Shown here: positions 1,332-23,982 of the stretch, piece after piece
Position numbering within the stretch: the stretch's first letter is position 1
Layout of the letters: every line of letters starts with the position of its first letter
Made by a program: the position numbers and the translations under genes
The notes under the pieces: generated by a model
What the model saw: the letters and a program-made list of their open reading frames with translations, nothing else
Database searches by the model: none
Told to the model about the DNA's origin: nothing
Source: an uncultured Anaeroplasma sp.
GTDB taxonomy: Bacteria > Bacillota_I > Bacilli_A > Acholeplasmatales > Anaeroplasmataceae
Length of the DNA stretch: 49,661 nt
Direction of reading: 5' to 3'
NCBI GenBank assembly: GCA_945919465.1
Contig: CAMEJG010000009.1
Coordinates: 1 to 49,661 of the forward strand

Positions 1332-1368
1332 TATTTTGAGTTTTTCTATCGCTCACCCACAAGGTAAT

Positions 1369-1456: not shown

Positions 1457-1482
1457 AAAAATATCTTAAGGAGCTGGTAATT

Positions 1483-1527: not shown

Positions 1528-1551
1528 GGCTTAAGCTTTGCAGGATTTTTT
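1520..1551 (+). terminator. Attenuator hairpin before DUF1016 gene 2
   Basis: Same 11-bp stem, TTAA loop and six-T tail as at 294-325. It lies between the leader peptide and the broken nuclease gene. Confidence 0.7.
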
Positions 1552-1573
1552 GAGAAAAGAGGAAATAAATACT

Positions 1574-2553
1574 ATGATTAAAACAAAAGAAATAACAATT
1601 ATTGAGAAAGGTTATTTAGAGGATTTAAATAAAATAAAAGAAACTATTAAATATAACCAAGCTAAAGCTATGGTAGTAGTTAATAGTGCTATGATTATGA
1701 CCTATTATGAAATAGGCACTATTATTAATCAAAGAAAAGTATGGGGAGCAAATATATTAAAAATCTAGCTAATGATTTAAAGGAATATGGGAAAGGATAT
1801 TCTTATGATAATTTAAATTACATGAGAAGATTTTCTTTTGAATTTTCTTATCATGAAATATTCGAGCAGCCTGCTCGACTAATTGCTTGGTTTACTTATG
1901 TAATTATTATGCAAAAGTCACATTCTCATAAAGAAATGCTATGGTATATTGAACAAACATATAAAAACAAATGGTCAAGAAGCCAAGTAGAACTACAGTT
2001 TAAAGCTAAAGCTTATGAGAGATATTTAATTAATCTAGATACTTCTATACAAGATAGGGAAGTATCTATTAATACTGAATTAAATGAAATTGTAAAAGAT
2101 ACTTATGTTTTGGATTTTATAGGAGTAAATGATATTACTTCCGAGAAGAAATTACAAAATAGTATATTATCTAATATTCAAAAATTTATCTTAGAACTAG
2201 GTCAAGGTTTTTCCTTTGTTAGAGAAAAATATAGATTACCTATTGATGATATAGAATATGAAATAGATCTTTTATTTTATCATATTCCTAGTCATTCATA
2301 TGTTGTTATAGAATTAAAAACAACAAAGTTCAAACCTGAATATATAGGACAATTATTATTCTATACAAATTATATTGATGAATATATTAAAAGCGATTTA
2401 GATTCGCCTACTATTGGTATTGTACTATGTAGTGAAGCTAATAGCGTTGTATGTAAAACAACACTTAAGAATACTAAAAATTTAGCAATTTCAAAATATA
2501 AGGTAATTGAAGAATTAACAGAGTACCTAGAAAGAAAGTTAAATGAAAAATAA
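1574..2553 (+). pseudogene. DUF1016 nuclease copy 2, frameshifted
   Basis: The gene starts at ATG 1574 like copy 1. It loses one base near 1746: copy 3 has GGGGAAGCAAA where this copy has GGGGAGCAAA, and the first frame then ends at 1768. The second part reopens at ATG 1741 (MGSKYIKN) and runs 270 residues to 2553 with an intact nuclease core. Reinitiation could make an N-terminally shortened protein. From about 2150 onward it differs from copy 1 by only a few bases, whereas its middle (GYSYDNLNYMRRFSFEF) is clearly different. It could act as a sequence donor for copy 1; that is inference. Confidence 0.8.
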
Positions 2554-2850: not shown

Positions 2851-3435
2851 ATGAAAATTGTTAGAGAACTATTAAGCATAACTCAAGAAGAGTTTGCAGA
2901 TGCAATAGAAGTTGAAACATTAACAATTAAAAGAATTGAAAATGGTATAACTAGAACTTCCAAAAGAACTCATGATTTGTTTTATGATTTTGTCTATAAG
3001 AAGAAAATTTATTTAAATAAAATTAAGGAAATGTTTTATAAAGAAGAATTAACAAATGAGATATTATTATTTCATGGAGCTAAGTCAGCTATATTAGGTG
3101 ATATAAATATAAGTAAATCAAGGAAAAACAATGATTTTGGTCAAGGGTTTTATTGTGGTGAGTCATATGAACAATCAGCTTCATTTGTAGAAAACTTTGA
3201 AAATTCATCAGTGTATTATTTTTCATTTGACACTTCAAATTTAAAATGTATGAAGTATGATGTTAATCGTGAATGGATGTTGACAATAGCTTATTTTAGA
3301 GAAACATTAAATAAATATAAAGACTCTTCTATTATTAAAAACTTAATATCAAAATTAGATAATATTGATTATGTTATCGCTCCTACTATAGATAATAAGA
3401 TGTTTAGCTACATTAAAAAAGTTAGGTTATATTGA
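2851..3435 (+). pseudogene. HTH + DUF3990 protein, C-terminally truncated chimera
   Basis: The product has an Xre-like helix-turn-helix at residues 1-45 (LLSITQEEFADAIEVETLTI). A DUF3990-like domain follows (LLFHGAKSAI, SRKNNDFGQGFYCG, ending APTIDNKMFSYI). DUF3990 proteins resemble ADP-ribosyltransferase folds and often appear in toxin-antitoxin-like settings. The normal C-terminus is missing: from about 3408 the DNA matches the 3' end of the AlbA_2 gene at 26631 in another frame, so the last residues are junk. It is open from its own ATG and may be expressed, but is probably inactive. The palindrome over its -10 suggests regulation by its own HTH. Confidence 0.65.
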
Positions 3436-5610: not shown

Positions 5611-6198
5611 ATGAGTTTAACAATTGCATTAAAACACGAAGGAATTATTTATATGGGGTCGGATTCTATAGCCTGTAGAGATGTAAAGCATTATCTTACA
5701 AATCCAAATAGTTACAGAATCTTTCCTGTAAAGGGATGTGACAACATGCTTATGTCTTTAGATGGAAGAATCGTAGAGCATAATGTTGCTAGATGTAATT
5801 ATTTAGTTCCAGAGACTGTAGCTATGAAGGGAGAAATTGATTTCGAATTTATGGTGAATGAATTTGTTCCACATCTATTTGATCTATTTGATGATAGACA
5901 TGTCTTAAAGTGTAAAGACAATGACTATTCCTGTGAATCAGATATGATTGTCGCCTACAGGGATAAGTTATTTGAAATATTCTCAGATGGAGCTGTAGTC
6001 GAATGTGACGATTATGCAGCAATCGGTAGTGGGGTTGAAGAAGCATTAGGAAGCTTACTTACTACATCAGACATTAAAGATCCTAAAGAAAGAATCTTAA
6101 TGGCATTAAAAGCTGGATTAGCTAACAAGATTAGAGTTGCATATCCATTAGTTATTACAAACACAGAAACTTGTGAATTTGAAACAATTGAAGAATAG
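5611..6198 (+). CDS. Proteasome-fold Ntn-hydrolase-like protein, paralog 1
   Basis: A 195-residue protein with the HslV/proteasome beta-subunit pattern. After Met removal Ser is residue 1, and Asp sits at position 17 in GSDS as in HslV and proteasomes. A late AIGSG turn (YAAIGSGVEEALGSL) matches the conserved region after the second sheet. The basic residue equivalent to Lys33 appears as Arg (SYRIFPV), so activity is uncertain. ATG 5611 was chosen because it lies 10 bases after AGGGGG and aligns with paralog 2; the earlier ATG at 5602 would bury the nucleophile. No HslU-type partner is adjacent, but an AAA ATPase is encoded at 11756. Confidence 0.7.
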   Translation: MSLTIALKHEGIIYMGSDSIACRDVKHYLTNPNSYRIFPVKGCDNMLMSLDGRIVEHNVARCNYLVPETVAMKGEIDFEFMVNEFVPHLFDLFDDRHVLKCKDNDYSCESDMIVAYRDKLFEIFSDGAVVECDDYAAIGSGVEEALGSLLTTSDIKDPKERILMALKAGLANKIRVAYPLVITNTETCEFETIEE

Positions 6199-6209
6199 GG
6201 TGTGATTTA

Positions 6210-6854
6210 ATGAGCGTTGTAATTGCAATTAAAGATAAGGATAAGGTTTATTTAGCAGCTGATAGCCAATGTACTTGTGGCGCATCAAAGTTAACTTTAT
6301 CAAATCCTAATAATTATAAGATTTGGAAGACAAAAGGCTTAGACAATTCAATTATGTGTCATACAGGTGCTTGTCGTGACATGGGAGTTATTAGATTCAA
6401 TAATTTCATACCTGAGACAAGAGCACTTCGTGGAGATATTGATATTGAATTTGTTCAAGGTGAAATGGTCTATGATATGTTCGATGCTCTTAAAGAATAT
6501 GAGTTTACAGAAAGTGAAGAAGGTCCTCATATGGCATCTGGATACTTATTTGCTTATAAGGATAAGGTCTATGAGATTTCTAGATGGATGTATGTTATCG
6601 AAATTGATGACTACACCGCAATGGGATCAGGTAGAGATAGTGCGATGGGTTCTTTAGCTGCTACAGTTGGAGAGCCAATTGAAAGTAGATTACTTAAAGC
6701 AGTAATAGCTGCAGCAAACATTGATCTATGTGTAGGTTATCCAATCATTATTACTGATACTGAATCATGTGAATTTAAGATATTCGATGAGGAAGATATT
6801 AAGAAGACACTAAAGATTGAAAACATATCTAGGACATCCAGAATGTGTTTATAA
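6210..6854 (+). CDS. Proteasome-fold Ntn-hydrolase-like protein, paralog 2
   Basis: A 214-residue paralog of the preceding gene, starting 11 bases after its stop and probably in the same transcript. Processing of Met would expose Ser1; Asp17 is present in AADS, and the Lys33-like residue is kept (NYKIWKT). AMGSGRDSAMGSL matches the conserved glycine turn. Both catalytic elements are therefore better preserved than in paralog 1, and a mixed ring of one active and one modified subunit is possible. Role unknown: peptidase, amidase or a sensing subunit are all open. Confidence 0.7.
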   Translation: MSVVIAIKDKDKVYLAADSQCTCGASKLTLSNPNNYKIWKTKGLDNSIMCHTGACRDMGVIRFNNFIPETRALRGDIDIEFVQGEMVYDMFDALKEYEFTESEEGPHMASGYLFAYKDKVYEISRWMYVIEIDDYTAMGSGRDSAMGSLAATVGEPIESRLLKAVIAAANIDLCVGYPIIITDTESCEFKIFDEEDIKKTLKIENISRTSRMCL

Positions 6855-9268: not shown

Positions 9269-9331
9269 TAGAATAGCTGTTAATTAATGTCAGTCCTCCT
9301 TTTTATATAAATTAACAGCTATTCTATTTTT
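9269..9331 (+). terminator. Long-stem intrinsic terminator
   Basis: AGAATAGCTGTTAATT (9270-9285) pairs perfectly with 9310-9325, with one more T-A pair outside, and is followed by a T tract. The loop contains CCTCCTTT, which resembles the anti-Shine-Dalgarno end of 16S rRNA; that may be chance. It separates the 3.9-9.3 kb genes from the kinase operon. Confidence 0.75.
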
Positions 9332-9565: not shown

Positions 9566-10900
9566 ATGAGGTTTAGTAAAAATGAATCATTTAATTTAAA
9601 TGGTAAAAATATAAAAATTTTAGATTTGTTAGGTGAAGGTGGGCAAGGCGAAGTTTATTTAGTGACTGATGGGACAAGTCAGTTTGCTTTTAAATATTAT
9701 AAATATATTCCGTCAGATGATTTCAAATATAATTTAAAAAATAATATTGCAAAAGGTAGTCCATCGAACAATTTTTTATGGCCTAAAAAATATATTGAAT
9801 TTGAAGATAAAAGTTGTGGATATTTAATGGAATTAAGACCCAAAAATTATGCATCTTTTATTTCATATTTAACTGGTAAAACTAGATTCAAAACAACTAG
9901 AGTAATGTTGAATTGGTGTATAGAACTTGTTCAAAGTTTTAAAGCATTACACGAAAAAGGCTATTCATATCAAGATTTAAACGATGGATCATTTTTCTTA
10001 GATCCTGACACTGGTGGGTTATTGATTTGTGATAACGATAATGTAACAGCAGATAAACGTAATCTTGGAGTATTAGGCAAGATGCGTTACATGGCCCCTG
10101 AAATAGTAAGAGGTGATAAAGACAACTATACAGGAGATAGACAAATGCCGGATACACATTCAGATAGATTTAGTCTAGCAATCATACTATTTTTAGCATT
10201 TTGTCTCGGTAATCCTTTTGAAGGTGAGTGTTTAAAGAAATATATAATCATAGATGAAAATGCAGAATATGAAATGTTTGGTGAATCTCCTGTTTACATA
10301 TATGATGAATTTAATAATTCAAATAGACCTATTAGAGGATACCATACGGCTGTTTTGAATAGATATCCTAATCTTCCTTCATACATAAAAGAAGCATTTC
10401 ATAAGACTTTTACTTTAGGTTTAACGGATAGAGAAAATTCAAGAACAACTGAGATAGAATGGTTAAAACTATTATGTAAGTGGCGCGATGAATTAATTAC
10501 ATGTGATTGTGGTAAGGAATATATTTATGGATTTAATGAAAAGAAGCAGAATGAAAAATGCCCTTATTGCAGAAATAAAACTAGAATTTTTTGTTATCTA
10601 CATGTAGGCAAAAATAAAATTATCTTAGAGCCTAATAAATATCTTTATAAGATTCATATTGATAAGTATTCTAATGGATATAATGAACCTGTTGCTAAAA
10701 TTATAAAAAACAAGAAAAATCCTGGTTTATGGGGAATTGAATTAAGATTAGATAAGGATATTTATATAAAGGATAAAGAAGGTAAAGAGAAGATTATAAA
10801 GAAAGATGGAGTGATTCCCATTATTTCAAATTTAAAGATTAAATTTAATGATGGAGTAATAGGAGAAATTTTAAATAATAATGGAGGATCTAGATTATGA
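9566..10900 (+). CDS. Ser/Thr protein kinase with zinc ribbon (TerY-P type)
   Basis: A 444-residue kinase. The glycine loop is GEGGQGEVY (residues 23-31) and the ATP-binding lysine is in FAFKYYK (43). The catalytic loop is YQDLNDGSFF: Asp is kept, but the HRD histidine is Tyr and the usual Asn is Ser. DFG is replaced by DND (ICDNDNV). An APE motif follows (MAPEIV). Residues about 312-336 form a zinc ribbon with CDCG and CPYC, followed by a beta-rich domain. Kinases with a zinc ribbon accompany TerY vWA proteins and PP2C phosphatases in TerY-P triads, as found here. The next gene overlaps its stop (ATGA). Confidence 0.85.
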   Translation: MRFSKNESFNLNGKNIKILDLLGEGGQGEVYLVTDGTSQFAFKYYKYIPSDDFKYNLKNNIAKGSPSNNFLWPKKYIEFEDKSCGYLMELRPKNYASFISYLTGKTRFKTTRVMLNWCIELVQSFKALHEKGYSYQDLNDGSFFLDPDTGGLLICDNDNVTADKRNLGVLGKMRYMAPEIVRGDKDNYTGDRQMPDTHSDRFSLAIILFLAFCLGNPFEGECLKKYIIIDENAEYEMFGESPVYIYDEFNNSNRPIRGYHTAVLNRYPNLPSYIKEAFHKTFTLGLTDRENSRTTEIEWLKLLCKWRDELITCDCGKEYIYGFNEKKQNEKCPYCRNKTRIFCYLHVGKNKIILEPNKYLYKIHIDKYSNGYNEPVAKIIKNKKNPGLWGIELRLDKDIYIKDKEGKEKIIKKDGVIPIISNLKIKFNDGVIGEILNNNGGSRL

Positions 10901-11736
10901 ATACAATGCAAATTACTAATTTAATATTAAGAAAGGCATACGAGAAGGACATAACAGTAGAAACTCATTTTAGTGTTTTTAATAATGGAATGGATCCTGC
11001 TCAACCAATGATTCAATTAAATTTGAAAACTAAATATTTTAAAGATTTTGCTTTCTATTATGCTTTATATGATCGTTATTTTAATTATTCAGCTACCTTT
11101 GTAGTTGATGATAATAAAGATATAAAAGCAAAGAGATTATTTAACTTAGACAAGGGAATTTTTAATGAATATAGCACAAATGATGATTATAGTATTATTG
11201 AGCTAGTAAATGAGATTGAGGTTGAATCTATTAATGAAGAAGATATAGATAATATCTTTGAATACATTACAAGTGAACATGAATTAATTAATCATTTGAA
11301 TGATATTAATAATGGTAAAGAATTAATTTTAGAAGGTGATGAAAATACTGATTTATTATTAAAGAAACTTTATAAGTCAGGTTTAGATGTTGAATTAGAG
11401 TTAGATATTGATGATTCAGTAGATGATGCAGTCCAAGTCCAAATCAATGTTAAACCTAAGTATTTTAGGGATTTTGCAATATTTTATGGTACAAAGGATA
11501 ATAAATTAAATTTCTCTTCTATATTTGAGGTTGATAATAAAAATGATTTTAACGCCAAAAAATTATTCGATAAAAATAATGGGATATTTAAATCATTTAT
11601 AGTTGATGAAGACGATGAAAAGATTCATTTATATACTGAAATATCATTTAAAGATTTAAATGATAAGTTTATTGATGAAATTATAAAATATTTAAGTGAG
11701 GAGCATGAATTAATAAACTATTTAAATAGAATATAA
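10897..11736 (+). CDS. Protein with two tandem copies of an unknown domain
   Basis: A 279-residue soluble acidic protein built of two repeats (about 5-138 and 150-279). Shared marks are KYFKDFAFYY / KYFRDFAIFY, AKRLFNLDKGIF / AKKLFDKNNGIF and SEHELINHLNDI / EEHELINYLNRI. The alternating beta-strand and helix pattern suggests a small alpha/beta fold. It is translationally coupled to the kinase (ATGA overlap). A fragment of a related gene lies at 5385. No named family is recognised; an adaptor or substrate of the kinase is a guess. Confidence 0.75.
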   Translation: MNTMQITNLILRKAYEKDITVETHFSVFNNGMDPAQPMIQLNLKTKYFKDFAFYYALYDRYFNYSATFVVDDNKDIKAKRLFNLDKGIFNEYSTNDDYSIIELVNEIEVESINEEDIDNIFEYITSEHELINHLNDINNGKELILEGDENTDLLLKKLYKSGLDVELELDIDDSVDDAVQVQINVKPKYFRDFAIFYGTKDNKLNFSSIFEVDNKNDFNAKKLFDKNNGIFKSFIVDEDDEKIHLYTEISFKDLNDKFIDEIIKYLSEEHELINYLNRI

Positions 11737-11755
11737 AATTAATAAAGGAGATCCG

Positions 11756-12868
11756 ATGACAATAGTACAATATCTTTCTAAGATTAATGATTTGTTATGT
11801 AGAAGTATTGGTAAGAAAATAGAGCATTTAACCTATGGTATAGGCTATATAAAGTCTTTAGAGGCTGAAAATGTTATAGTTAAATTTGATGAGTTAGATG
11901 AATTTAAAGTTTTTAGGAAGGAAAATTTCTTTAAATTTAATTACCCAGTAGATGAAGATTTAATTACCGAATATCAAGCTATTAATTGTGAATACGAGCT
12001 ATCTAAAAATATCAAACAAGAGGATCGTTCAAATAGCATATCAGCCCCTATTATTAAATCAGATAAGATAACATTTGATGATGTAATAGGGCTAGATAAT
12101 GTTAAGGATGAGGTTAATAGATTAATTGTATATCCCTTTAAATATCAAGAGATTTATAGAGCATTTAAACGCAAATCAGGTGGTGGAATACTTTTATATG
12201 GAGCGCCAGGCTGTGGTAAGACAATGATTGTTAAAGCAATTGCAAATGAGGTCAATGCTAAATTATTTGTGGTAAAATGTAGCGATATTAAATCTAAATG
12301 GTATGGTCAATCAGAACAAAAGATTAGGGATATATTTAATGAGGCTAGAATGCATCATAAATCGATAATATTCTTTGATGAATTTGATGCATTAGGTATA
12401 AATAGAGATAAAGATGATTCTAGAATTGATAAGAATATAGTTGCTGAACTATTAACACAAATTGATGGGTTTGACAGCAAGGATTCAAAAAACACATTAT
12501 TATTGATTGCAGCAACTAATAAGCCTTGGAATATAGATAGTGCTTTAATTAGAAATGGTAGATTTGGTAAGAAGATATATGTTGGATTACCAACTAATGA
12601 TGCGATAACAAGGATAATAAAGCATGAATTATCTGATTTGCCAATTGAAGAAATTGATTTTAATGAGATTTCAGCTGATTTGGATAATATGAGTCCTGCA
12701 GATATTGTAGCTTTATGTAATGAGGCTAAGGACTTAGCAATTAAAAGAAGTATAGAAAATAGTACTATTAGTCCTATTAATAAATTAGATTTAATAAAGG
12801 CTAAGGATATAATTAAATCAACAATTAATGTTAATGAATTAAAGAGATTAGAAAATTTTAGTATATAG
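11756..12868 (+). CDS. AAA+ ATPase, Vps4/katanin-like
   Basis: A 370-residue protein. An N-terminal small beta-barrel-like segment (YGIGYIKSLEAENVIVKFDE, about 27-58) precedes one classical AAA module. Walker A is GAPGCGKT (about 148), Walker B IIFFDEFDA, sensor 1 AATNKP, and arginine finger RNGRFG. KWYGQSEQKI after strand 2 is as in Vps4/spastin/proteasomal ATPases. Such ATPases remodel or unfold proteins as hexamers. It could serve the vWA proteins, or be an unfoldase for the Ntn-hydrolase-like proteins upstream (inference). AAAGGAG precedes the ATG. Confidence 0.85.
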   Translation: MTIVQYLSKINDLLCRSIGKKIEHLTYGIGYIKSLEAENVIVKFDELDEFKVFRKENFFKFNYPVDEDLITEYQAINCEYELSKNIKQEDRSNSISAPIIKSDKITFDDVIGLDNVKDEVNRLIVYPFKYQEIYRAFKRKSGGGILLYGAPGCGKTMIVKAIANEVNAKLFVVKCSDIKSKWYGQSEQKIRDIFNEARMHHKSIIFFDEFDALGINRDKDDSRIDKNIVAELLTQIDGFDSKDSKNTLLLIAATNKPWNIDSALIRNGRFGKKIYVGLPTNDAITRIIKHELSDLPIEEIDFNEISADLDNMSPADIVALCNEAKDLAIKRSIENSTISPINKLDLIKAKDIIKSTINVNELKRLENFSI

Positions 12869-12878
12869 GTAGATAATT

Positions 12879-13601
12879 ATGAAGGATAGAACATTAGTTG
12901 AAGGAATTAAAAGACAAGAATTAAATTTATTATTTGTTATTGATAATAGTGGTTCAATGGAAGGTGAAAAAATTGGTGCAGTTAATAATGCGATTAGAGA
13001 TATTATGACAATTATGCCTGAAATCCAAGAAGACACAAGCGATGCTGATATTATGATTAGTGCATTGACTTTTTCGGATGATGCTAAATGGGTATATGCT
13101 GAACCTCAAAGAGTAACAGAATTTAAATGGAAAGATATAAGAACTGATGGTTGTACAAATTTAAGTTGTGCATATGATGAATTATCTAAGTTTTTATGTA
13201 GAAGATCAAATGGAGGGAAAATGCCTGATATTGGTGGAGTTGCGCCAATAATCATTTTAATGAGTGATGGTATGCCAACTAGTTATGATTGGGAAGACCA
13301 TTTAAAAGAATTAAAGAAAAAAGGTTGGTTTAAAGTCGCACTAAAATACGCACTTGCAATTCAAATAGATACCCAAGAAGCAATGGATGTATTAAGTAAA
13401 TTTACTGGTAATAACGAAACAGTTTTAAAGGTTTATACAGCTGAAGCATTACGCCAGGTTATTAAAGTTATAGCAGTAACTGCAAGCAAGGTTAAGTCCT
13501 CATCAAGTATTATAAATGGAAGTAATTTAGTTAATAAAGAAGAGTTAGCTAAGCAAGAAATTAATAAAGGTTTAGAAGAAATTAGTAATGTAGAATGGTA
13601 G
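12879..13601 (+). CDS. TerY-like von Willebrand A protein, paralog 1
   Basis: A 240-residue vWA domain with a complete metal (MIDAS) site: DNSGS (DxSxS), Thr in DGCTNLS and Asp in MSDGMPT. Size and layout match TerY of TerY-P systems, where vWA proteins bind metal and partner proteins. It starts ten bases after the AAA gene. Confidence 0.85.
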   Translation: MKDRTLVEGIKRQELNLLFVIDNSGSMEGEKIGAVNNAIRDIMTIMPEIQEDTSDADIMISALTFSDDAKWVYAEPQRVTEFKWKDIRTDGCTNLSCAYDELSKFLCRRSNGGKMPDIGGVAPIIILMSDGMPTSYDWEDHLKELKKKGWFKVALKYALAIQIDTQEAMDVLSKFTGNNETVLKVYTAEALRQVIKVIAVTASKVKSSSSIINGSNLVNKEELAKQEINKGLEEISNVEW

Positions 13602-13606
13602 GATTT

Positions 13607-14317
13607 ATGAAAGATAGAATCGCTAAAGAAAGATTAAATATTATTTTATTAGTTGATGCTTCTAAATCTATGAGTGGTAAAAGAATTGAACAAGTTGATT
13701 CTGCAATATGTGATATAAAAAAGTATTTAGTAGATTTGCAATCTGAAAATACAAATGTTGATTTTTATATGACAATAATCCCATTTTCTAATAATGCTAG
13801 TTTTTATAATAACAAAGAAATGATTAATATTGATCAGTTTAAATATGATGGTATTAAAACTGGTGGATGGAGTAATTTACATTTTGCATATGAAAAGCTA
13901 GGAGATATTTTAAAAAAGGAATCTAAAGGTGGAATTATGCCTGATTTTGGAGGCGCAGCTCCAATCATATTGCTTTTAACAGATGGACATCCTACTGGAA
14001 AAGAATATAAAGAAAAATTGAAGATGATTGAAAATATCCCATGGTTTAAAGCGGCATTAAGATATGGAATAGCAATAGAACTAGATGATAAATTAACTAC
14101 AAGTGTTTTAAGAGATTTTGTTGGAAATAATGGAGATGTAATAAAGTGTTATGATTCTTCAATGCTAAAAAATATAATTAAGATTATTGTATTAACCGCT
14201 TCAAAAGTAAAATCTACAAGTGCAAATGTTAGTTATAATCCAAAAGAATCACAAAATAAAATAGTTCAACAACAAATAGCAGAAGCATTAAGTGAAACTG
14301 AAGATTGGGAGTGGTAG
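13607..14317 (+). CDS. TerY-like von Willebrand A protein, paralog 2
   Basis: A paralog of the previous gene. ATG 13607 was chosen because it gives the same MKDR start as paralog 1; an ATG at 13595 overlaps the upstream stop. The MIDAS motif is DASKS, the Thr position is Ser (GGWSNLH), and Asp is in LTDGHPT. Two diverged vWA proteins side by side suggest a heteromeric complex. Both end in a WEW/EW tail (EDWEW here, VEW in paralog 1). Confidence 0.85.
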   Translation: MKDRIAKERLNIILLVDASKSMSGKRIEQVDSAICDIKKYLVDLQSENTNVDFYMTIIPFSNNASFYNNKEMINIDQFKYDGIKTGGWSNLHFAYEKLGDILKKESKGGIMPDFGGAAPIILLLTDGHPTGKEYKEKLKMIENIPWFKAALRYGIAIELDDKLTTSVLRDFVGNNGDVIKCYDSSMLKNIIKIIVLTASKVKSTSANVSYNPKESQNKIVQQQIAEALSETEDWEW

Positions 14318-14318
14318 T

Positions 14319-15137
14319 ATGTTATATGTTTTTTCAAAATCAAGTATAGGCTATTCTCATATTAAAGAAAAGAAAAAATGTCAAGATTTTAGCGCAACAT
14401 ATAAAGATACAGAAAGAACGATTGTTACATGCTGTGATGGACATGGAGGAAAAAAATACATTAGAAGTCATATAGGTTCACATATGGCTTCTAATGCCAT
14501 AATCAATGTGTTTAATTCTATCCATCCTAGTTTTTTTAGATTAAAGGATAATGAAATAGAAAATAAAATTAAATTGTCTATTTTATGTGAATGGAATAAA
14601 TTGATAGAAGGACAAATGTCATATAAATCAATAAAAAAACACGAACTAGTTAATTTAGATGAAGATGAAATTTTAGCATTAAAATCTAATCCAGCTACAG
14701 CTTATGGAACAACACTTACAGGTGCATTACTTTTAGGTAATAAATTATTAGTTGTTAAGATAGGTGATACAGAATGCATTGGTATTAAAAGAGGAGAATT
14801 AGTTGATATCTTTGATAGTTCTGATGAACCAGCTGCAAACGTAACATATTCGATGTGTCAAGATGATGCGTTTAAATATTTAAAAGTAAAGGTATTAGAT
14901 TTTAGGGATTTAGATGGAATTATATTATGCACAGATGGACTAACAAGCCCATATCAATCATATGATAATTTTAAAAAATCTTTTATAAAACCAATGATCA
15001 ATAAAATTATTAACACTAATAGTTTAAGTTATATTGACGAATTTATAGATGATATAGCTACAAATTTAGGTGTTGGTGATGATGTGAGTTTATCATTTAT
15101 TTTAAGTGATAATATATCAAAAAAATATTATAAATAG
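14319..15137 (+). CDS. PP2C-family Ser/Thr phosphatase
   Basis: A 272-residue phosphatase with the metal-binding motifs of PP2C: CQDF near the start, CDGHGG, GTTLTGALL, IGDTE, CTDGL and a C-terminal GDDVSLS. It would reverse phosphorylation by the kinase at 9566 and completes the TerY-P triad. ATG 14319 begins one base after the stop of the vWA gene, with GGGAGTGG in front; an earlier in-frame ATG at 14292 lies inside that gene. Confidence 0.85.
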   Translation: MLYVFSKSSIGYSHIKEKKKCQDFSATYKDTERTIVTCCDGHGGKKYIRSHIGSHMASNAIINVFNSIHPSFFRLKDNEIENKIKLSILCEWNKLIEGQMSYKSIKKHELVNLDEDEILALKSNPATAYGTTLTGALLLGNKLLVVKIGDTECIGIKRGELVDIFDSSDEPAANVTYSMCQDDAFKYLKVKVLDFRDLDGIILCTDGLTSPYQSYDNFKKSFIKPMINKIINTNSLSYIDEFIDDIATNLGVGDDVSLSFILSDNISKKYYK

Positions 15138-15149
15138 GAGTGAAATAGG

Positions 15150-15455
15150 ATGAGTTTTAAAGAAGCTTTAAACAAATTAATTCATGAATATGGGATTGAG
15201 ATTTTGAATGATAAATTTAAAACTCGTTCTTTTTTATGTGATTGTGTTGGTTCTAATTATTATGAAAACAGATTAATTGAAAACTTTATACTAATTAATT
15301 GTATATTTGATTTAGTTTATGTTTTTAGTAATAAAGGATTAAAACAAGGTAGGGTATTTTTGCAAGATAAGTATGAAATTTTTAAATCAGATATTACTAA
15401 AAAAGAATATGTTGATTCTATTAACCCTATAGCTGAGATAATATGTATTAATTAA
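15150..15455 (+). CDS. Small hypothetical protein at the operon end
   Basis: A 101-residue soluble protein beginning MSFKEALNKLIHEYG, with hydrophobic strands in the middle (LIENFILINCIFDLVYVF). It starts 12 bases after the phosphatase with AGGAG in front, so it belongs to the operon. No family is recognised. It has the size of a small regulatory subunit, chaperone or adaptor. Confidence 0.6.
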   Translation: MSFKEALNKLIHEYGIEILNDKFKTRSFLCDCVGSNYYENRLIENFILINCIFDLVYVFSNKGLKQGRVFLQDKYEIFKSDITKKEYVDSINPIAEIICIN

Positions 15456-15574: not shown

Positions 15575-16516
15575 ATGGGTAAAGCTGCAATGTGTATACA
15601 AATGCTGCAAATATTGAACACTGGACGAGTATATAAAATATCAGAACTTGCAGAAATGCTTGAAACCAATCCAAGAAATATTGTCGAATATAAAAAAGAA
15701 TTAGAAGAGTGTGGTTATTACATTGATACAATTCCTGGTAGATACGGTGGATATAAATTAGATCAAAGTGAAATTTTGCCCGCTTTTAAATTTACACTTA
15801 ATGAAATAGATGTTATTGATGAAGCTACTAATTATTTATTAACTAGAAATGATTTTATGCTTAAAGATAAATTTCATGGAGTTATGACAAAAATTTATTC
15901 TTCTATATCTAAAGAAAATTTTATAAACGAATTAACTGTAATTAATAGATATCCTTTGGCAATGCCTGAGGAAGAATTAAATAAGAGATTTGAAATTATT
16001 AGAACAGCTATTATTAATAAACGTGTTTTGAAATTAAAATATGTATCTCAAAAAAATATAGAAAGAGAACATCTATATCATCCTTATGATTTATTTATGT
16101 ATAATAACGCTTGGTTTGTTATTGGGTGGTGTGAAACTTGGAATGATGTTATTTATTTTAAATTAAATAGAATAACAGAAATTTCTCAAACAAGTAAAAT
16201 CTTTAGAGTTTATAAATTTTATAATAAACGAGATTATATTGATGATTTTGGTTTTAAGAAAAATGGTGAGTGGCATCATATTGAATTTGAAGCTTATGAT
16301 ACTTATGCTTCTTTAGTTAAAGAAAGAATTTATGGTAAGAATCAAGAAATCATACCTATAGATGAAAAAAAGACTTTGGTAAAAGTTGATATGCAAAATA
16401 AAGAAAATATTTTAGTATTTATACTAGGCTTTAATAAACATATAAAAGTTTTAGAACCACAATGGTTAATTGATGAGTTAAAAGATTTTAAAGAATATTT
16501 GTCGAATTCATATTAA
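15575..16516 (+). CDS. WYL-domain transcription regulator
   Basis: A 313-residue protein with a DeoR/YafY-type helix-turn-helix (residues 5-60, ELAEMLETNPRNIVEYKKEL). A WYL domain follows (about 145-210, ending in YFKLNRITEI), then a WCX-like C-terminal part. WYL regulators sense ligands, often nucleic acids, and control defence and stress operons. It lies just after the TerY-P operon on the same strand, so it is a good candidate regulator of it. GAGGGTG precedes the start; the 120-base gap before it is AT-rich with TATA runs. Confidence 0.85.
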   Translation: MGKAAMCIQMLQILNTGRVYKISELAEMLETNPRNIVEYKKELEECGYYIDTIPGRYGGYKLDQSEILPAFKFTLNEIDVIDEATNYLLTRNDFMLKDKFHGVMTKIYSSISKENFINELTVINRYPLAMPEEELNKRFEIIRTAIINKRVLKLKYVSQKNIEREHLYHPYDLFMYNNAWFVIGWCETWNDVIYFKLNRITEISQTSKIFRVYKFYNKRDYIDDFGFKKNGEWHHIEFEAYDTYASLVKERIYGKNQEIIPIDEKKTLVKVDMQNKENILVFILGFNKHIKVLEPQWLIDELKDFKEYLSNSY

Positions 16517-17200: not shown

Positions 17201-17397
17201 AATAAAACAAGAATATAGATTATGAAATTTTTAGGTTGGGTTTTTACAATTTTTTCTTGCAAGAGGCAAAACAAGGAAAATATTTTACATTTTATTCTTG
17301 GTCTTAGAAGCAAATGCGAGGTTCTTAAAAACGAATGGTTGAAGGAGAAAGTTGTTGAAACAATAGATAAACTAGTACGAAAAGGAAGATGGTTAAA

Positions 17398-20300
17398 ATG
17401 AGAAAAAACAAATTATTATTGGGCTTAAATTTTATATTTATTTGCTCATTGAGCATTGTGTTTATAATATTAAATGTATTTGCAATAAGGGCGGAAAGCA
17501 ATTCTATAACTGTTAATGCAAAGACCTATGAATTTGACGCTAACAATGATTATAGCTTTTCTTCTGCATCTGAGGTTTCTACTATGTCTTATGGTAGAAA
17601 ACAAATGGGTACTTTAACTATTTCAGGTAATATTACGGATAAATCCACATTTAAGAACAAGACGGCTTATGGCGTTGGTGATTATAGCGTAATATCCTTT
17701 TCGTATTCTTACGATGGAGCTTATCAAACTTCCGTAAAAGAAGATTGGAACTTGCGTTCTGATTCAGGTACAAAGGTTGACGAATTTGATTTAAGTGGTA
17801 GCATAGACAAAGGTGTATTGCTTGTGCAAATATCTTCTGATGGCTCAACTTGGGTTAATGCTGTAAATCCTATTACTAATTTCTATGCTTCTAATTCGTC
17901 GGGAAAGGCCGACTTTTATACAACCGACGGCTCTGATGTTGCACAAGGTAAATACTATCGTGTAATCTTGGCGTATCAAACGGGTAGAAAAATCGGCGAG
18001 TCAGGTGCGCTTTGGTGGAAAGAAGATGTCTATGAAGATAAACGCCACGTAGAATTGTATGAATTTTATTTGGTAGTAAATAGTGGTACTATTTCCGTAC
18101 ACAACTTGGCTGTTGATGAATCTTCTCTTCCTGAAATCGAAGGGTTTACCCAAGAAACTATTAAAAGAGGAGAAACTTTGCTTGATGGTTCTACAACAAC
18201 GAAAGGTTTTTCTATCGATAAGTTAGGAACATCTTACTTGGTAAGTGTTTCAAAAGACGGTGGCACAGCTTCCTATGTCAACGATGGTGCTACCTTTACT
18301 GAAAACGGCAAATATACCATTACCACAATCACAAAACTTGGGAAGCAATTAACCCAAACAGTTTACGTTTTCAACGGAGGAGCTGATAGTGGTTATTCTA
18401 CATATTTTGGCGATTCAATCGTAGATGGTAATCGTGTGTTCAGATACGGCGATTATCCTACATATGCAAAAGGTTCATCCGTACAAATTAATGCTGTCGC
18501 TAATAATGTTCCGATATTAAACGGCAAGATTATTAATACTGTAAGCGGCGAAGAAATTACCTTTGCTTCTAATCGAAACGGTCAGAAAATTGATTTAGAC
18601 GCAGGTTCTTATTGTGTTGATTGTTATAGCGGAGAAACCACATCAGGTACAGTATATCACTATAAAGCATATTTTAATGTCATTGACGAAGATTCTGCTC
18701 CTTATGTGAATTATGACAACTTGATGAAAACACAAAGGCTGTCTGACTTGACTTCCAAACATTATGAAGTCGCATATCAAACAACTGCCGGTGGATACAT
18801 TTTTGTTTGTTTTGATTTGGATTCCTACGATGAAGCATTTAATTATGCTTATGAAATAGAAAAAAGATTTATTGAGCAAACCGACGATGGATTGTACTAT
18901 AAATCCCAAGAAAACCCTAACGTAAAGGTTAAATATTACGATTACGTTGCAATGACGAGCGTTTTAAATTATTATGCTCGCAAAAATGTTGAATACAACT
19001 ATTTTAATCCGATTGATGCTTTTACGTATCAAACTTATGCAGATGATTTATTGGAGCAATTAGAGTCGTTGTCTATTAGAGAAAGCATCAAAGTATTCCC
19101 ATCACAAGCCGAAAAGGATAAGTTGATTAACCGTCAACCTTTCATTAACGATTTTACTTTTATTAAAGTAGCTGATTATGACGTTGTTTCGGTAAATGCT
19201 TATTGCCATAAGAACGGAAGGAATTATGCTATTGAGTTTGGTAAAGATGTTTCACAACAATTGACCGTTTCATCTAAATACACAATTACGGAAACTAATG
19301 TGTATGGAGATACAAAGGTTTACGATGTGTATTATGCCAACGAGAATCAAACAACATCTATTTGGGACGTTTCTTATAACGGAGTAGATTCTAAGTTAAC
19401 CGTTTCAAGCTCTATGCTTGTAAATAATAAGATAGAAATAACGGCGGACACAATCTCTATTTCATCTATCGAAAACAATTTTGACGTCAATTCTATCGTT
19501 ACAATTAAAGCTCCCGAAGTTTACAGCTTTGAAATCAAGTGCTTGATTTCCGAATTGGAAAACGTAGGTTTATACAAAAAAGGAAAATATGAATTAACCT
19601 TCGTTGACCGTATTGGTAATTCGTATCAGTTGATTATCAATATCACGGGAAAATCTCGTTATTCTGACGTTGTAACAATGTCAACTCGTTCATATACAAG
19701 CTTCTACAATGCAGTTTATCTGAACGATAGAACTGAAAGCGAAGAAATAATTTATGACGTAATAGCATTAAAGACTGCTATTGACAGAGTTGTTGATGCT
19801 AATTTGTACACACCAAGCAGCTACGCTAATTACACACGTTATTTGCAAGAAGCTCGCAATGTGTATGAAAATCAAAATGCTACTCAGGAACAAATCAATT
19901 CGGCTACATTGAACTTGGAAACTGCATATTCTGCTCTTGTTAGAACTGCTGATAAAACATCATTGTCTAATGAGTTAAATAAGTTTGAAACGATAAATAT
20001 GGGAGCTTATACAACGGCATCCTATAATGCCTATAAGTCTGCTTATTATTCGGCACTTGTAGTTTATGAAAAAGATGAACCAACAGTTGAAGAAATTGCA
20101 CTTGCTGTTCAATCGTTGAAAAACGCTTATGATTCTTTGGCTTTGAGAGGAGATAAGACTGCATTATATACCAAGATGCAGGAAATAAAAGGTGTTGATT
20201 GCTCTTTATATACTCCTAATAGTGTGGAATCTTTGAATGAGGCATATGAGCAAGCTGCTACTGTTTTTGCTAATATCGATGCAACACAAACCGAAATTGA

Positions 20301-21153
20301 TGCAATGATTAGTTTATTGAATAATAGAAAATCTGCATTGGTTTTCGTAGCTGATTTTAGTAGCTTGCTGACAGCAATTCAACAAGTTCAGGCTATTGAT
20401 GAAACACTTTATACTACTGCAACGATTGAAACGTTAAAAATCAAATATAACGAAGCTGTTGCAGTTTATAAAGATAGAAATAATACGCAGAGCGTTGTAA
20501 CTGCGGCAAAGAATGCTTTGGTTCAAGCAAAGAATGCTTTGGTTGCTTGCGGTAATTCGACAGCGTTAAAGAATTTGACTGACGAAATAGCAGAACTTCC
20601 TTATATGATTTATTCTAAGGAAACGATTGAACCGTTGCTCACCAAATATAATGAAGCTTTAACGATATTAAGCGCACGTTACATTCAAAGCGAAATTGAT
20701 ACAATTAAAACTGAGCTAACGTTATTAAAGAATGGCTTAGTAATTAGAGAAGATAAGCAAGAACTATACAACACTCTTACCGAAATGGCTCAAATAGATA
20801 TTTCGGTATATTCAAAAGAAAAACAAGAAGCTTTCTTTTCTGCTTACAATTCTGCGTTGACAATATTAAATTCTTTGGATTCGACCGAAGAGCAAGTTTC
20901 GTTCGCAAAGCAAAGTATTCAAGAATCTAAGATCAATTTGGAAAGTAAAGATGGAATGCATTGGGCATTGTGGGTATTGCTTATTATTTTAGCAATTGTC
21001 GGAGTGATTCTACTTATTTGTTGGATTTATTTCGGTTTTGTTGAAGGTGATTGGGATATAGAAGCTTATCCTTGGATTGAATTTGCTATTGGTTTGATTT
21101 TGCTCGTTGGTTCGGTATTGATTATGATATTATTTGGTATATTAGGAATGTGA
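17398..21153 (+). CDS. Large surface protein with six FIVAR-type repeats
   Basis: A protein of about 1251 residues with an N-terminal signal (LLLGLNFIFICSLSIVFIIL). A long beta-rich region with Ig-like segments runs to about residue 785. Six helical repeats of about 65 residues follow (about 786-1184), each with a LYT/VYS...Y...A...L pattern and ending near AL or NL. Two C-terminal membrane helices end the protein. FIVAR repeats occur in cell-wall-bound adhesins and polymer-binding proteins. There is no LPxTG, so anchoring is by the terminal helices. ATG 17398 has AAAGGA at 11 bases; ATG 17389 is too close. Base composition is less AT-rich than upstream genes, suggesting transfer. Confidence 0.8.
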   Translation: MRKNKLLLGLNFIFICSLSIVFIILNVFAIRAESNSITVNAKTYEFDANNDYSFSSASEVSTMSYGRKQMGTLTISGNITDKSTFKNKTAYGVGDYSVISFSYSYDGAYQTSVKEDWNLRSDSGTKVDEFDLSGSIDKGVLLVQISSDGSTWVNAVNPITNFYASNSSGKADFYTTDGSDVAQGKYYRVILAYQTGRKIGESGALWWKEDVYEDKRHVELYEFYLVVNSGTISVHNLAVDESSLPEIEGFTQETIKRGETLLDGSTTTKGFSIDKLGTSYLVSVSKDGGTASYVNDGATFTENGKYTITTITKLGKQLTQTVYVFNGGADSGYSTYFGDSIVDGNRVFRYGDYPTYAKGSSVQINAVANNVPILNGKIINTVSGEEITFASNRNGQKIDLDAGSYCVDCYSGETTSGTVYHYKAYFNVIDEDSAPYVNYDNLMKTQRLSDLTSKHYEVAYQTTAGGYIFVCFDLDSYDEAFNYAYEIEKRFIEQTDDGLYYKSQENPNVKVKYYDYVAMTSVLNYYARKNVEYNYFNPIDAFTYQTYADDLLEQLESLSIRESIKVFPSQAEKDKLINRQPFINDFTFIKVADYDVVSVNAYCHKNGRNYAIEFGKDVSQQLTVSSKYTITETNVYGDTKVYDVYYANENQTTSIWDVSYNGVDSKLTVSSSMLVNNKIEITADTISISSIENNFDVNSIVTIKAPEVYSFEIKCLISELENVGLYKKGKYELTFVDRIGNSYQLIINITGKSRYSDVVTMSTRSYTSFYNAVYLNDRTESEEIIYDVIALKTAIDRVVDANLYTPSSYANYTRYLQEARNVYENQNATQEQINSATLNLETAYSALVRTADKTSLSNELNKFETINMGAYTTASYNAYKSAYYSALVVYEKDEPTVEEIALAVQSLKNAYDSLALRGDKTALYTKMQEIKGVDCSLYTPNSVESLNEAYEQAATVFANIDATQTEIDAMISLLNNRKSALVFVADFSSLLTAIQQVQAIDETLYTTATIETLKIKYNEAVAVYKDRNNTQSVVTAAKNALVQAKNALVACGNSTALKNLTDEIAELPYMIYSKETIEPLLTKYNEALTILSARYIQSEIDTIKTELTLLKNGLVIREDKQELYNTLTEMAQIDISVYSKEKQEAFFSAYNSALTILNSLDSTEEQVSFAKQSIQESKINLESKDGMHWALWVLLIILAIVGVILLICWIYFGFVEGDWDIEAYPWIEFAIGLILLVGSVLIMILFGILGM

Positions 21154-21168
21154 ATGTGAGGTGGATAT

Positions 21169-23379
21169 ATGAAAATACATTATTATAGAATTATTTCATT
21201 TATATTATGTTGCGTAATGGTGTTTTCGCTTTGCGCTTGTAGCGGTGGTAATATTGATGGTGATCAAGTAAGTCTTACTCCACCATCTAATTCTGATTTT
21301 TGGGGCAAACCAGGCGATTCATCATCTCAAAGCGGTGGCAGTTGGGATACTGACTTAACACCGAATATCAATGTAACCATTATTGGTGACAATTCTAATA
21401 GCGATGAAATCATATACGATAATCTCGAAGGAGAAGAAACAGTTTATGATTTAGTTTACGAAAACATTTCTTATTCTTTGACAAACATAGGATTTGTTAC
21501 AAAAAATGCTATGGCAGTAAATTGCGATGATGATGTTGGAACTTCCGCTGTTGGTATGATGTATTATCGTGAAGACGTACCAATTTTTGCAGATGAGTCT
21601 TATCAAGGAACAGGCTTTTACGAAATATTAAGTGAACCTGAAAATATTACTCAACTTGAAAGCTCAGAAGCATTGTTTGTAAAAAACTTAGAGGATGAAA
21701 CTGATGTAACAACTTATTTGGTAGCGTATGATTATCAAAACATTGGCTATGATCATTTTGTGTATGATGGTAAATATGTTGTTTACTATCAGGAAAGTGA
21801 TAACGTAATTAGATATATCGAAAAGGATAATATTAGAGAAGAATACGATTTATCTCTTGGTAGTTTGTTCGACTATGATAAGGGAGAATATATCTACGAT
21901 GCTTCTATTTTTGATGATTATATAGGGCATTCGGGTAATTCGTTAATAAGCAAACAAGATTATGAAAAATTAGAAAACGAATTAAAAGTGTTATCTGAAC
22001 AACAACTTGCCAACGGATACATAGTATCAGAGTATAACATCGTTTATATTTCCCCTGAAAGCATACAAGCTTATTTATCAAGTGAAGAGGAAGATACTTT
22101 CTTTGGCTATAATGTTGACGAATTAACAGCAGAATTTGGTCTTGGAACAGCTTTAACCTATAATGGAAGCACTTTTGAAAAATCAACTATTATTTCCGAA
22201 GAAGAAGGTTATAATTGGAGATCTTTCTTGATGAAAATGGGTATTGGCTGTGGTATTATTTTAGTAGGGGCAATACTCTCACCTGTTACAGGTGGCGCTT
22301 CTTTCGGTTGTGCGTTGCTTACAATTAGTAAAGTTGCTGTTTCATTTGCATTATCATCTGCAATAGGTACACTCGCAATTGAAACTGTATCAGGATTGAT
22401 ACAAGGGCAATCAATTGAAGATGCATTGAAAAATGCAACACATAAAGGTCTTGATGCTTTTGCTAACGGATTTATGATTGGGGCGGCTGTTGGAAGTGTG
22501 GGGCTACTAACCGGTGCTATAAAACCGTCAGCATGTTTCGTGGCAGGAACATCAATAGCTATGGCGTATAATGTTTTTAAACCAATAGAATCGATTTGTA
22601 TTGGCGATTATGTGTTGTCATATAACGAAAAAGATGGCACTATTTCTCGCCAAAAAGTAATTGATACTTTTAGCAAACAAGTTTATCAAACAACAGGCTT
22701 AACTATCAATGGTGAATATATTGAAACAACATATAATCACCCGTTCTATTCTCCGATTTATAAATGCTGGGTTCAGGCAGGAAGTTTACGTGTTGGTGAT
22801 TATCTTGTAGATTCCAATGGTAATTGTCAGATGGTTCAAGCTACTCAAACAAACAATTATGATTATCCCGTAACGGTTTACAATTTTACGGTTGAAAGCA
22901 ATCATACATATTATGTTGGAGATAGTGAAATTCTTGTTCATAATAAGTGTAATGATGTTTTCCGTAAGGCAGGTAACGATGCAGGCAAAAAAGCTAAAGC
23001 GCAAGCATTAGATGATATTGTTGCGGGTCGTAACTATAAAAAGTGGGGATTAAATCCTTCTAACCCCAAAGATATGGAAGTAATCAAGTATGTTCAAAAG
23101 TATAAGACATTCAAAGGGTCAGGGTGTGAATTTGCTCACGCCATAGACGTTAACGCAATAAAGAGTGCATATAAGAGTGGGAAAATTACTTATCAACAAG
23201 CACTAGATTTTTGTGCTAATCCTAATAACGGTATTTTAACAAGCCATTATACGCATCATATTATAATTCACGCAGGGAATTATAATAATCCATCAAACAT
23301 ATCAGTTATATTAAAAGCTCGACCTTCTATTAAGGGGACTATCGAAATGATACAAACTGCTTTGGGTGTGGTTGCATAG
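21169..23379 (+). CDS. Lipoprotein-type polymorphic toxin with Hint domain and nuclease-like tip
   Basis: A 736-residue protein. Residues 1-24 are a lipoprotein signal with LCAC lipobox. A low-complexity and beta-rich region follows, then glycine-rich hydrophobic helices (about 360-450). A pretoxin Hint domain follows (about 453-591): CFVAGTSI start, TTYNHPFYSP histidine block, NHTYYVGDSEILVHN end. This autoprotease domain releases C-terminal toxins. The last 145 residues carry GCEFAHAIDV and HYTHHIIIHAGN, resembling an HNH-like nuclease; the exact family is uncertain. The next gene looks like its immunity protein. A lipobox on a Hint toxin is unusual. It follows the FIVAR gene by 15 bases. 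Confidence 0.8.
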   Translation: MKIHYYRIISFILCCVMVFSLCACSGGNIDGDQVSLTPPSNSDFWGKPGDSSSQSGGSWDTDLTPNINVTIIGDNSNSDEIIYDNLEGEETVYDLVYENISYSLTNIGFVTKNAMAVNCDDDVGTSAVGMMYYREDVPIFADESYQGTGFYEILSEPENITQLESSEALFVKNLEDETDVTTYLVAYDYQNIGYDHFVYDGKYVVYYQESDNVIRYIEKDNIREEYDLSLGSLFDYDKGEYIYDASIFDDYIGHSGNSLISKQDYEKLENELKVLSEQQLANGYIVSEYNIVYISPESIQAYLSSEEEDTFFGYNVDELTAEFGLGTALTYNGSTFEKSTIISEEEGYNWRSFLMKMGIGCGIILVGAILSPVTGGASFGCALLTISKVAVSFALSSAIGTLAIETVSGLIQGQSIEDALKNATHKGLDAFANGFMIGAAVGSVGLLTGAIKPSACFVAGTSIAMAYNVFKPIESICIGDYVLSYNEKDGTISRQKVIDTFSKQVYQTTGLTINGEYIETTYNHPFYSPIYKCWVQAGSLRVGDYLVDSNGNCQMVQATQTNNYDYPVTVYNFTVESNHTYYVGDSEILVHNKCNDVFRKAGNDAGKKAKAQALDDIVAGRNYKKWGLNPSNPKDMEVIKYVQKYKTFKGSGCEFAHAIDVNAIKSAYKSGKITYQQALDFCANPNNGILTSHYTHHIIIHAGNYNNPSNISVILKARPSIKGTIEMIQTALGVVA

Positions 23380-23391
23380 CGGAGGATAAAT

Positions 23392-23982
23392 ATGAAGAAA
23401 ATAATAGAAAAACTTGAAAACAAATGGAAATCTTTTGAAAGAGATACGTTTTATCTTAAGCAATGTGATACAAGTCATAACAAAAAGCAATCATATTTAA
23501 ATGTTTTGTTTAATGCGACTAATGTTTCAAAATTACAAGATGTTCAAGAAGCTTTCTCTTGCGAATTCCATCCTGAAATAAAAGATTTTTATAAAAATTT
23601 TAACGGAATAATGTTGTTTTCCGAAAGTTTAAGGATATATGGTATTGAATCTAACTATGAGGCACTATATGATTCATACGATATAATTGAACAAAATGAA
23701 AATGATTGTATTGAAAGTTACGGCGATGAATATTTAAATTTCATTGTGTTTGGGTATTATTCTTATTGTCTTTTCTGCTTTGATAAAACTGATTTTGAAT
23801 TCTTATACGTTTTTGACACAAGGCAAGAAAAAGTAGTGTATAAATTCAAAAAACTATCAGAGCTGCTTTCGCACTATGTTGATTATTTATACGATGAATA
23901 TGATAATCAAGGAATGAAGATACATTATGATAAGAGCTTAAAAGGCTTGCCTATCGCAAATGTATCAACAGAATTTATTTAA
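23392..23982 (+). CDS. SUKH-family (SMI1/KNR4) immunity protein
   Basis: A 196-residue soluble protein with the SUKH pattern: LPxDxxxFYxxxNG seen as FHPEIKDFYKNFNGIMLF, followed by IYGIES and a central beta sheet (FIVFGYYSYCLFCFD). SUKH proteins neutralise nuclease and other toxins of polymorphic systems. It starts 12 bases after the toxin gene with GGAGG in front, the usual toxin-immunity order. Confidence 0.8.
   Translation: MKKIIEKLENKWKSFERDTFYLKQCDTSHNKKQSYLNVLFNATNVSKLQDVQEAFSCEFHPEIKDFYKNFNGIMLFSESLRIYGIESNYEALYDSYDIIEQNENDCIESYGDEYLNFIVFGYYSYCLFCFDKTDFEFLYVFDTRQEKVVYKFKKLSELLSHYVDYLYDEYDNQGMKIHYDKSLKGLPIANVSTEFI

What the first reader, a model, noticed from the sequence alone, without database searches (positions are those of the whole stretch)
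9566..15455. Extended TerY-P system: kinase, duplicated-domain protein, AAA ATPase, two vWA proteins, PP2C
The kinase-vWA-PP2C triad is known from Ter-associated systems and has been tied to stress and phage defence. Here it is extended by a Vps4-like AAA ATPase, two vWA paralogs with different MIDAS residues, an unknown two-repeat protein and a small protein, in one tight operon with a WYL gene behind. The whole set is not a combination I recognise.
Basis: partly seen in the sequence, partly recalled or inferred. Interest (0 to 1): 0.75.

Follow-up and report, generated by a model that had tools for sequence, protein, structure and literature searches.

The report
TerY-P phospho-switch with protease and toxin
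A gut bacterium carries a kinase–phosphatase switch of a known defence-associated type; in its relatives the same switch sits in one gene array with a proteasome-like protease and secreted surface or toxin proteins, which suggests protease and surface partners for this signalling module that I did not find described.

Summary
The eight ORFs are real and tightly packed. The kinase has a C-terminal zinc ribbon; with vWA and PP2C it is a TerY-P triad. The two vWAs are old paralogues (37% identical) with different MIDAS residues, conserved across loci.

The six-gene set is not a unit. In the six closest loci, the shared core is kinase–vWA1–vWA2–PP2C–adaptor. The AAA and the two-repeat gene occur inside this core only in the window. 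The 'small protein' is a shortened adaptor; relatives are 329–368 aa.

(1) A proteasome/HslV-like peptidase family, in array with the kinase in 5 of 6 relatives; two copies at 5611–6854 here. (2) A large surface protein and a lipoprotein pretoxin with SUKH immunity gene (17389–23982), syntenic in relatives; two others carry a MACPF protein there.

The two-repeat protein has no detectable relatives, but its half models as a type III secretion-chaperone/YbjN fold. Duplicated TerY vWAs with a CDC48-type AAA are already described in Type III-A CoCoNuTs (PMC11090510). Verdict: new variant of TerY-P; protease and surface/toxin links are the interesting part; mechanism inferred.

The parts
5611..6198 (+). 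proteasome/HslV-like Ntn-hydrolase family protein, copy 1 (starts MSLTIAL; Ser at the Thr1 position, Asp at the D17 spacing, R in place of the K of the KI motif)
   Evidence: PF00227 E=0.003 for this copy; nearest rows by tree path are the TerY-P-linked copies
6210..6854 (+). proteasome/HslV-like Ntn-hydrolase family protein, copy 2 (starts MSVVIAIK...AADSQ; KI motif present)
   Evidence: PF00227 7e-5, just over the curated cut-off; profile A1 matches BPH 5ovu 3.5e-6 and HslV 1m4y 3e-5
9269..9326 (+). strong RNA hairpin followed by T-run, probable terminator separating the upstream genes from the kinase operon
   Evidence: -22.2 kcal/mol, z -3.5
9566..10900 (+). Ser/Thr kinase with C-terminal zinc ribbon (CxC...CxxC); Lys and catalytic Asp kept, HRD reads YQD, DFG reads DND
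10897..11736 (+). two-repeat protein; half predicted as a type III secretion-chaperone/YbjN-like domain
11756..12868 (+). classic AAA ATPase (CDC48-D2/PAN/Vps4 class) with Walker A GAPGCGKT, Walker B IIFFDEFD, sensor 1 ATNKP; short N-terminal beta-rich region
12879..13601 (+). vWA1, complete MIDAS, C-terminus VEW
13595..14317 (+). vWA2, variant MIDAS (DASKS, Ser for Thr), C-terminus WEW
14319..15137 (+). PP2C phosphatase, metal-binding Asp motifs kept (QD, DGHGG, TDG, GDD)
15150..15455 (+). adaptor-domain protein, N-terminal 100 aa only (relatives 329-368 aa)
15575..16516 (+). HTH-WYL-WCX regulator, syntenic in 4 related loci
17389..21153 (+). 1254-aa secreted/membrane-anchored surface protein (FIVAR repeats), syntenic with L028 3328-7302 and L036 8225-11941
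21169..23379 (+). lipoprotein pretoxin: PT-HINT domain, C-terminal domain of unassigned (possibly HNH-like) type; N-terminal part homologous to pretoxin of L028, which ends in a WHH nuclease domain
23392..23982 (+). SUKH-1 (SMI1/KNR4) immunity-like protein
   Evidence: PF09346 3e-6, over cut-off

Best explanation
The window carries a TerY-P-type phosphorylation switch (zinc-ribbon kinase, PP2C phosphatase, two vWA scaffolds) with a helical adaptor protein as its output. It belongs to a conserved array in gut Bacilli/Clostridia whose other parts are a proteasome-like peptidase, a lipoprotein, a WYL regulator and a cassette of secreted surface/toxin proteins. In this genome a tandem secretion-chaperone-like protein and a CDC48-class AAA ATPase sit between kinase and vWA1. 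Proposed working: a signal (metal, envelope or cell-contact stress; unknown) shifts the kinase/phosphatase balance on the vWA or adaptor proteins. vWA1 acts as a metal-dependent docking module, vWA2 as a metal-altered partner. The phosphorylation state gates client proteins that are held by the two-repeat protein, unfolded by the AAA and possibly cut by the proteasome-like peptidase. It also gates deployment of the surface/toxin cassette through WYL. Shown: gene content, motifs, synteny and domain families. Inferred: all biochemical steps, the AAA-peptidase coupling, the signal and the output.
For: Triad plus zinc ribbon. Core order kin-vWA1-vWA2-PP2C-adaptor in all six closest loci (a lipoprotein gene lies between PP2C and adaptor in two). 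Peptidase family upstream of the kinase on the same strand in 5 of 6 loci, in an array with gaps of at most 119 bp, although the family is found in only 7 of 395 genomes of the class. No HslV over cut-off and no HslU over cut-off in the genome, so the window copies have no usual partner. Surface protein and/or pretoxin downstream in window, L028, L036 and L033; MACPF proteins in L034 and L037. Two-repeat protein modelled as secretion-chaperone/YbjN fold. AAA also among TerY-P genes in L026 and L027.
Against: In the window the peptidase genes lie 2.7 kb upstream behind other genes and a probable terminator, so they need not be co-expressed with the kinase. AAA and two-repeat gene are missing from the six nearest loci, and the loci that have the AAA (L026, L027) have no peptidase within the fetched region, so AAA-peptidase coupling rests on the window alone. 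The AAA tail (FSI) shows no HbYX docking motif (read from sequence). One peptidase copy has R for the active-site K. No expression or activity data. The chaperone fold rests on a two-row model with pLDDT 68. Locus counts are small and come from MAGs.
Confidence: 0.42

Rival explanations
1. An anti-phage defence module: the TerY-P switch senses infection and triggers a toxic response; the AAA/two-repeat pair, peptidase and pretoxin are separate neighbours in a defence/toxin island.
For: TerY-P triads act against T7-like phages (PMC7699616; Gao et al. 2020 as cited in PMC11090510). The AAA scores against IetA models, 2e-38. Island context: YhcG nuclease, SLFN_AlbA_2, AAA_14/DUF4143, SUKH. Other TerY-P loci here carry nuclease- or helicase-like partners.
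Against: PADLOC matches nothing for vWA, PP2C, the two-repeat or the 101-aa protein. No nuclease or other clear suicide effector inside the operon. The surface/toxin cassette is syntenic, not random, in several loci.
Confidence: 0.33
2. The core is an ordinary TerY-P triad of unknown housekeeping or stress role (metal or envelope stress), and the extra genes (AAA, two-repeat, peptidase, surface proteins) are passengers.
For: AAA and two-repeat gene are not conserved in nearest relatives; the adaptor is truncated here, as if decaying; peptidase relatives also occur in phage-like contexts.
Against: Peptidase gene in tight array with the kinase in 5 of 6 loci; same surface protein plus pretoxin order in window, L028 and L036.
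Confidence: 0.2
3. A diverged CoCoNuT (Type III-A) extension detached from its McrBC/UPF1 core.
For: Same signature: duplicated TerY vWAs, the second lacking the MIDAS Thr, plus a CDC48-like AAA (PMC11090510). A Klebsiella plasmid locus with that look (vWA, AAA, CARF, PP2C, kinase, AAA-domain protein) was picked up.
Against: No McrB, McrC, UPF1-like helicase or HEPN gene among the neighbours scanned. The AAA has one ATPase domain and lies between kinase and vWA1, not between the vWAs; 28% identity to the plasmid AAA.
Confidence: 0.05

Closest known systems
TerY-P triad (Anantharaman 2012, as summarised in PMC11090510; anti-T7-like activity per PMC7699616)
   Same: TerY-like vWA, PP2C, Ser/Thr kinase with C-terminal zinc ribbon, one operon
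   Different: two vWA paralogues, adaptor protein, proteasome-like peptidase, WYL and surface/toxin genes; AAA and two-repeat protein in this genome
Type III-A CoCoNuT 5' extensions with SpoVK/CDC48-like AAA (PMC11090510)
   Same: duplicated vWAs, second lacking the MIDAS Thr; CDC48-class AAA inserted among TerY-P genes
   Different: no McrBC/UPF1 core seen nearby; single-domain AAA between kinase and vWA1; other partner genes
Proteasome homologues of bacteria and phages: HslV, BPH, firmicute clusters FC1-5 (PMC8665760); PHROG 1040
   Same: fold family by profile, N-terminal nucleophile (Ser) and D17 spacing
   Different: in array with a TerY-P kinase; that paper's main text has no mention of kinase, phosphatase or von Willebrand; assignment to a named cluster not tested
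YbjN/DR1245 and class I type III secretion chaperones (PMC3575483, PMC5398634)
   Same: predicted fold of a half of the two-repeat protein (VIA Z 9.1 SycT, 8.6 DR1245, 7.3 YbjN)
   Different: tandem fusion, no sequence similarity detected, no secretion system implied
Polymorphic toxin-immunity loci (PT-HINT pretoxins, WHH nucleases, SUKH immunity)
   Same: window 21169-23982
   Different: syntenic with a TerY-P array

Membership tests
TerY-P triad | TerY-like vWA domain | tested here: met
   PF00092 over cut-off for both; complete MIDAS in vWA1
TerY-P triad | PP2C phosphatase with metal-binding Asp residues | tested here: met
   PF13672 8e-30; motifs conserved
TerY-P triad | Ser/Thr kinase fused to C-terminal zinc ribbon | tested here: met
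   PF00069 4e-12; four Cys invariant in 13 sequences
TerY-P triad | linkage to Ter genes (TerD/TerC) or restriction genes | tested here: inconclusive
   none among the neighbours scanned by Pfam; whole genome not searched for TerD
TerY-P triad | anti-phage activity | not testable with these tools
   needs phage challenge
Type III-A CoCoNuT | duplicated vWAs, second without MIDAS Thr, with inserted ATPase | tested here: met
   but the ATPase sits between kinase and vWA1 rather than between the vWAs
Type III-A CoCoNuT | McrB/McrC-like and UPF1-helicase/HEPN core genes | tested here: not met
   absent from the Pfam-scanned neighbours; a few small flanking ORFs were not scanned
Proteasome/HslV-like peptidase (5611-6854) | profile match and N-terminal nucleophile with D17 and K33 equivalents | tested here: met
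   PF00227 1e-9 in L033, 7e-5 in window copy 2, 0.003 in copy 1; BPH 3.5e-6; PHROG 1040 6e-14 in L033. K equivalent present in copy 2, R in copy 1
Proteasome/HslV-like peptidase (5611-6854) | ring assembly with cognate AAA and proteolysis | not testable with these tools
   biochemistry needed
YbjN / secretion-chaperone fold (10897-11736) | alpha-beta chaperone fold | tested here: inconclusive
   two-row AF2 model pLDDT 68; Foldseek best E 0.02, prob 0.96-0.97; VIA Z up to 9.1

The most novel reading that the evidence does not exclude
A TerY-P phospho-switch operates a small compartmental protease (proteasome-like peptidase, with a CDC48-class unfoldase and a tandem secretion-chaperone-like client holder in this genome) and thereby controls deployment of secreted polymorphic toxins or MACPF proteins: a bacterial kinase-phosphatase-proteasome circuit wired to interbacterial weapons rather than, or besides, phage defence.
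Probability: 0.17. Interest if true: 0.8.

Novelty: new variant of a known kind. Interest (0 to 1): 0.52.

Why it matters
TerY-P triads recur in defence and stress loci, but what they switch is not settled. A lineage where the triad is consistently in an array with a proteasome-like peptidase and with secreted surface/toxin genes gives concrete candidate outputs and a testable substrate route. It would also give proteasome-like proteins of Firmicutes, uncharacterised in PMC8665760, a genetic context with a signalling system.

Tried and rejected
Six-gene unit as such: rejected, because AAA and two-repeat gene are absent from the six nearest loci. Two-repeat protein as a diverged form of the X250 lipoprotein, the adaptor, or the zinc-ribbon protein of L026/L027: not supported by profile comparison (probability below 1%). 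Relatives of the two-repeat protein: none credible in 160 genomes of the order, 195 of the phylum, plasmids or IMG/VR; two hits at E 0.003-0.004 (L094, L095) were not followed further. Full-length AF2 model of it: pLDDT 37, unusable. PADLOC, PHROGs and NCBIfam gave no family for vWA, PP2C or small proteins that names the system. Promoter scan: below the shuffled expectation, uninformative. IMG/VR search with the vWA profile: two distant kin-vWA-PP2C loci without the extras. Tree of peptidases: too weak to show that the TerY-P-linked copies are one clade. Anantharaman 2012 is not held, so prior mention there of a proteasome-like partner could not be checked.

Full report
Observation. Families: kinase, AAA, two vWA, PP2C and WYL, all over Pfam cut-offs; the two-repeat and 101-aa proteins match nothing. 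PP2C most likely starts at 14319.

Kinase, vWA and PP2C. The kinase carries four invariant Cys in a C-terminal zinc ribbon and keeps the ATP Lys and catalytic Asp; HRD reads YQD and DFG reads DND. vWA1 has a complete MIDAS. vWA2 has DASKS with Ser for Thr, and the Ser holds across its orthologues, mostly (one has T at SNL: GGWTNL in L037). vWA1 orthologues are 71-80% identical to the window's among the six closest loci and vWA2 57-71%, while the two paralogues are 37% identical, so the duplication is older than the divergence of these loci. PP2C metal-binding motifs are kept. These are the features of the TerY-P triad (PMC11090510; PMC7699616).

Neighbourhood survey. A scan of GTDB contigs with vWA1 gave six close loci (L033-L037, L039) and genome searches gave more distant ones. 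In all six, the order is kinase-vWA1-vWA2-PP2C-adaptor (with a lipoprotein gene, X250, between PP2C and adaptor in L033 and L039), with WYL behind in L033, L034 and L037, and also in the partial locus L028. The kinase is directly followed by vWA1 there; only the window has the two-repeat gene and the AAA in between. The AAA (E<1e-50) is in 12 of 395 genomes of the class and lies in a TerY-P locus in three: the window, L026 and L027.

The 'small protein'. It matches the N-terminal 100 residues of 329-368-aa proteins at the same place in six other loci; a 124-aa version is in L034. It is best read as an adaptor domain whose C-terminal part has been lost here.

Upstream: proteasome-like peptidases. 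A family related to BPH/HslV (PF00227 1e-9 in L033; PHROG 1040 6e-14; PDB BPH 3.5e-6 by profile) sits just upstream of the kinase in L033, L035, L036, L037 and L039. Gaps between successive genes in these arrays are -41 to +119 bp. G150 (L023) has four divergent copies downstream on the other strand. The window has two at 5611-6854, closest to the TerY-P-linked copies (44-46% identity). Sequences begin M-S, with the Ser at the Thr1 position and Asp at the right spacing. In the class the family is in only 7 of 395 genomes; some other members lie in phage-like contexts. In the window a probable terminator and other genes separate these copies from the kinase. The genome has no HslV or HslU over cut-off.

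Downstream: surface protein and pretoxin. Window 17389-21153 matches L028 and L036 proteins at the same place (27-30% identity, E down to 1e-53). Window 21169-23379 is a lipoprotein with a PT-HINT domain, whose N-terminal part matches pretoxins in L028 and L036; the L028 and L033 proteins, related to each other, end in WHH nuclease domains. 23392-23982 is a SUKH-1 immunity-like protein. L034 and L037 have MACPF proteins there instead. In L033, L036 and L037 the array from peptidase to toxin or MACPF gene runs with no gap above 119 bp.

The two-repeat protein. Its halves are 39% identical. It has no credible relatives in the collections searched. A model of the second half built with the first as second row reached pLDDT 68 and resembles class I type III secretion chaperones and YbjN/DR1245 proteins (VIA Z 9.1 SycT, 8.6 DR1245, 7.3 YbjN; Foldseek probability 0.96-0.97 but E only 0.02). 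DR1245 was found as a partner of DdrB (PMC3575483, abstract), so client or partner binding next to an AAA unfoldase is a reasonable inference, no more.

What is known. Duplicated TerY vWAs, the second lacking the MIDAS Thr, with a CDC48-like AAA inserted, are described for Type III-A CoCoNuTs (PMC11090510); the McrBC/UPF1 core that defines CoCoNuTs is not seen among the neighbours scanned here. The proteasome-homologue survey (PMC8665760) does not mention kinase, phosphatase or von Willebrand in its main text, and the CoCoNuT paper does not mention proteasomes. The original TerY-P paper could not be read, so novelty of the peptidase link is provisional.

Mechanism. Most likely a phosphorylation switch gating proteostasis and surface/toxin deployment; phage defence is the main rival. 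All biochemical steps are inferred.

Noticed in passing
window 12879-14317 and orthologues: Most vWA1 and all vWA2 proteins of this clade end in a short tail with a terminal Trp (VEW, WEW, WDW, SGW); possible C-terminal docking motif, unexplained.
   Followed up: partly
window 312-2553: Two copies of YhcG-type (DUF1016 + PDDEXK) nuclease sequence in tandem, the second split over two ORFs.
   Followed up: no
window 2851-3435: HTH fused to DUF3990, with weak similarity to the PARP catalytic domain.
   Followed up: no
window 25297-28256: SLFN_AlbA_2/HATPase_c_4 protein and AAA_14-DUF4143 ATPase nearby; further ORFs at 46244-48047 look like toxin-antitoxin pairs (unscanned).
   Followed up: no
window 38308-43634: Tandem array of secreted paralogues, starting with a signal peptide and an ATYAW-like motif.
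   Followed up: no
L022 (NZ_CP084774.1): Klebsiella plasmid carrying mcr-10.1 also carries a vWA/AAA/CARF/PP2C/kinase locus that looks like a Type III-A CoCoNuT.
   Followed up: no
L026, L027: TerY-P arrays (double in L026) with band-7 and zinc-ribbon proteins, AAA and an RCC1-repeat protein; the AAAs there have a helical, possibly MIT-like N-terminus, unlike the window AAA.
   Followed up: partly
L023 15305-17602: Four proteasome-like copies in a row, two of which lack the usual N-terminal MS motif, so possibly a mixed active/inactive set.
   Followed up: no
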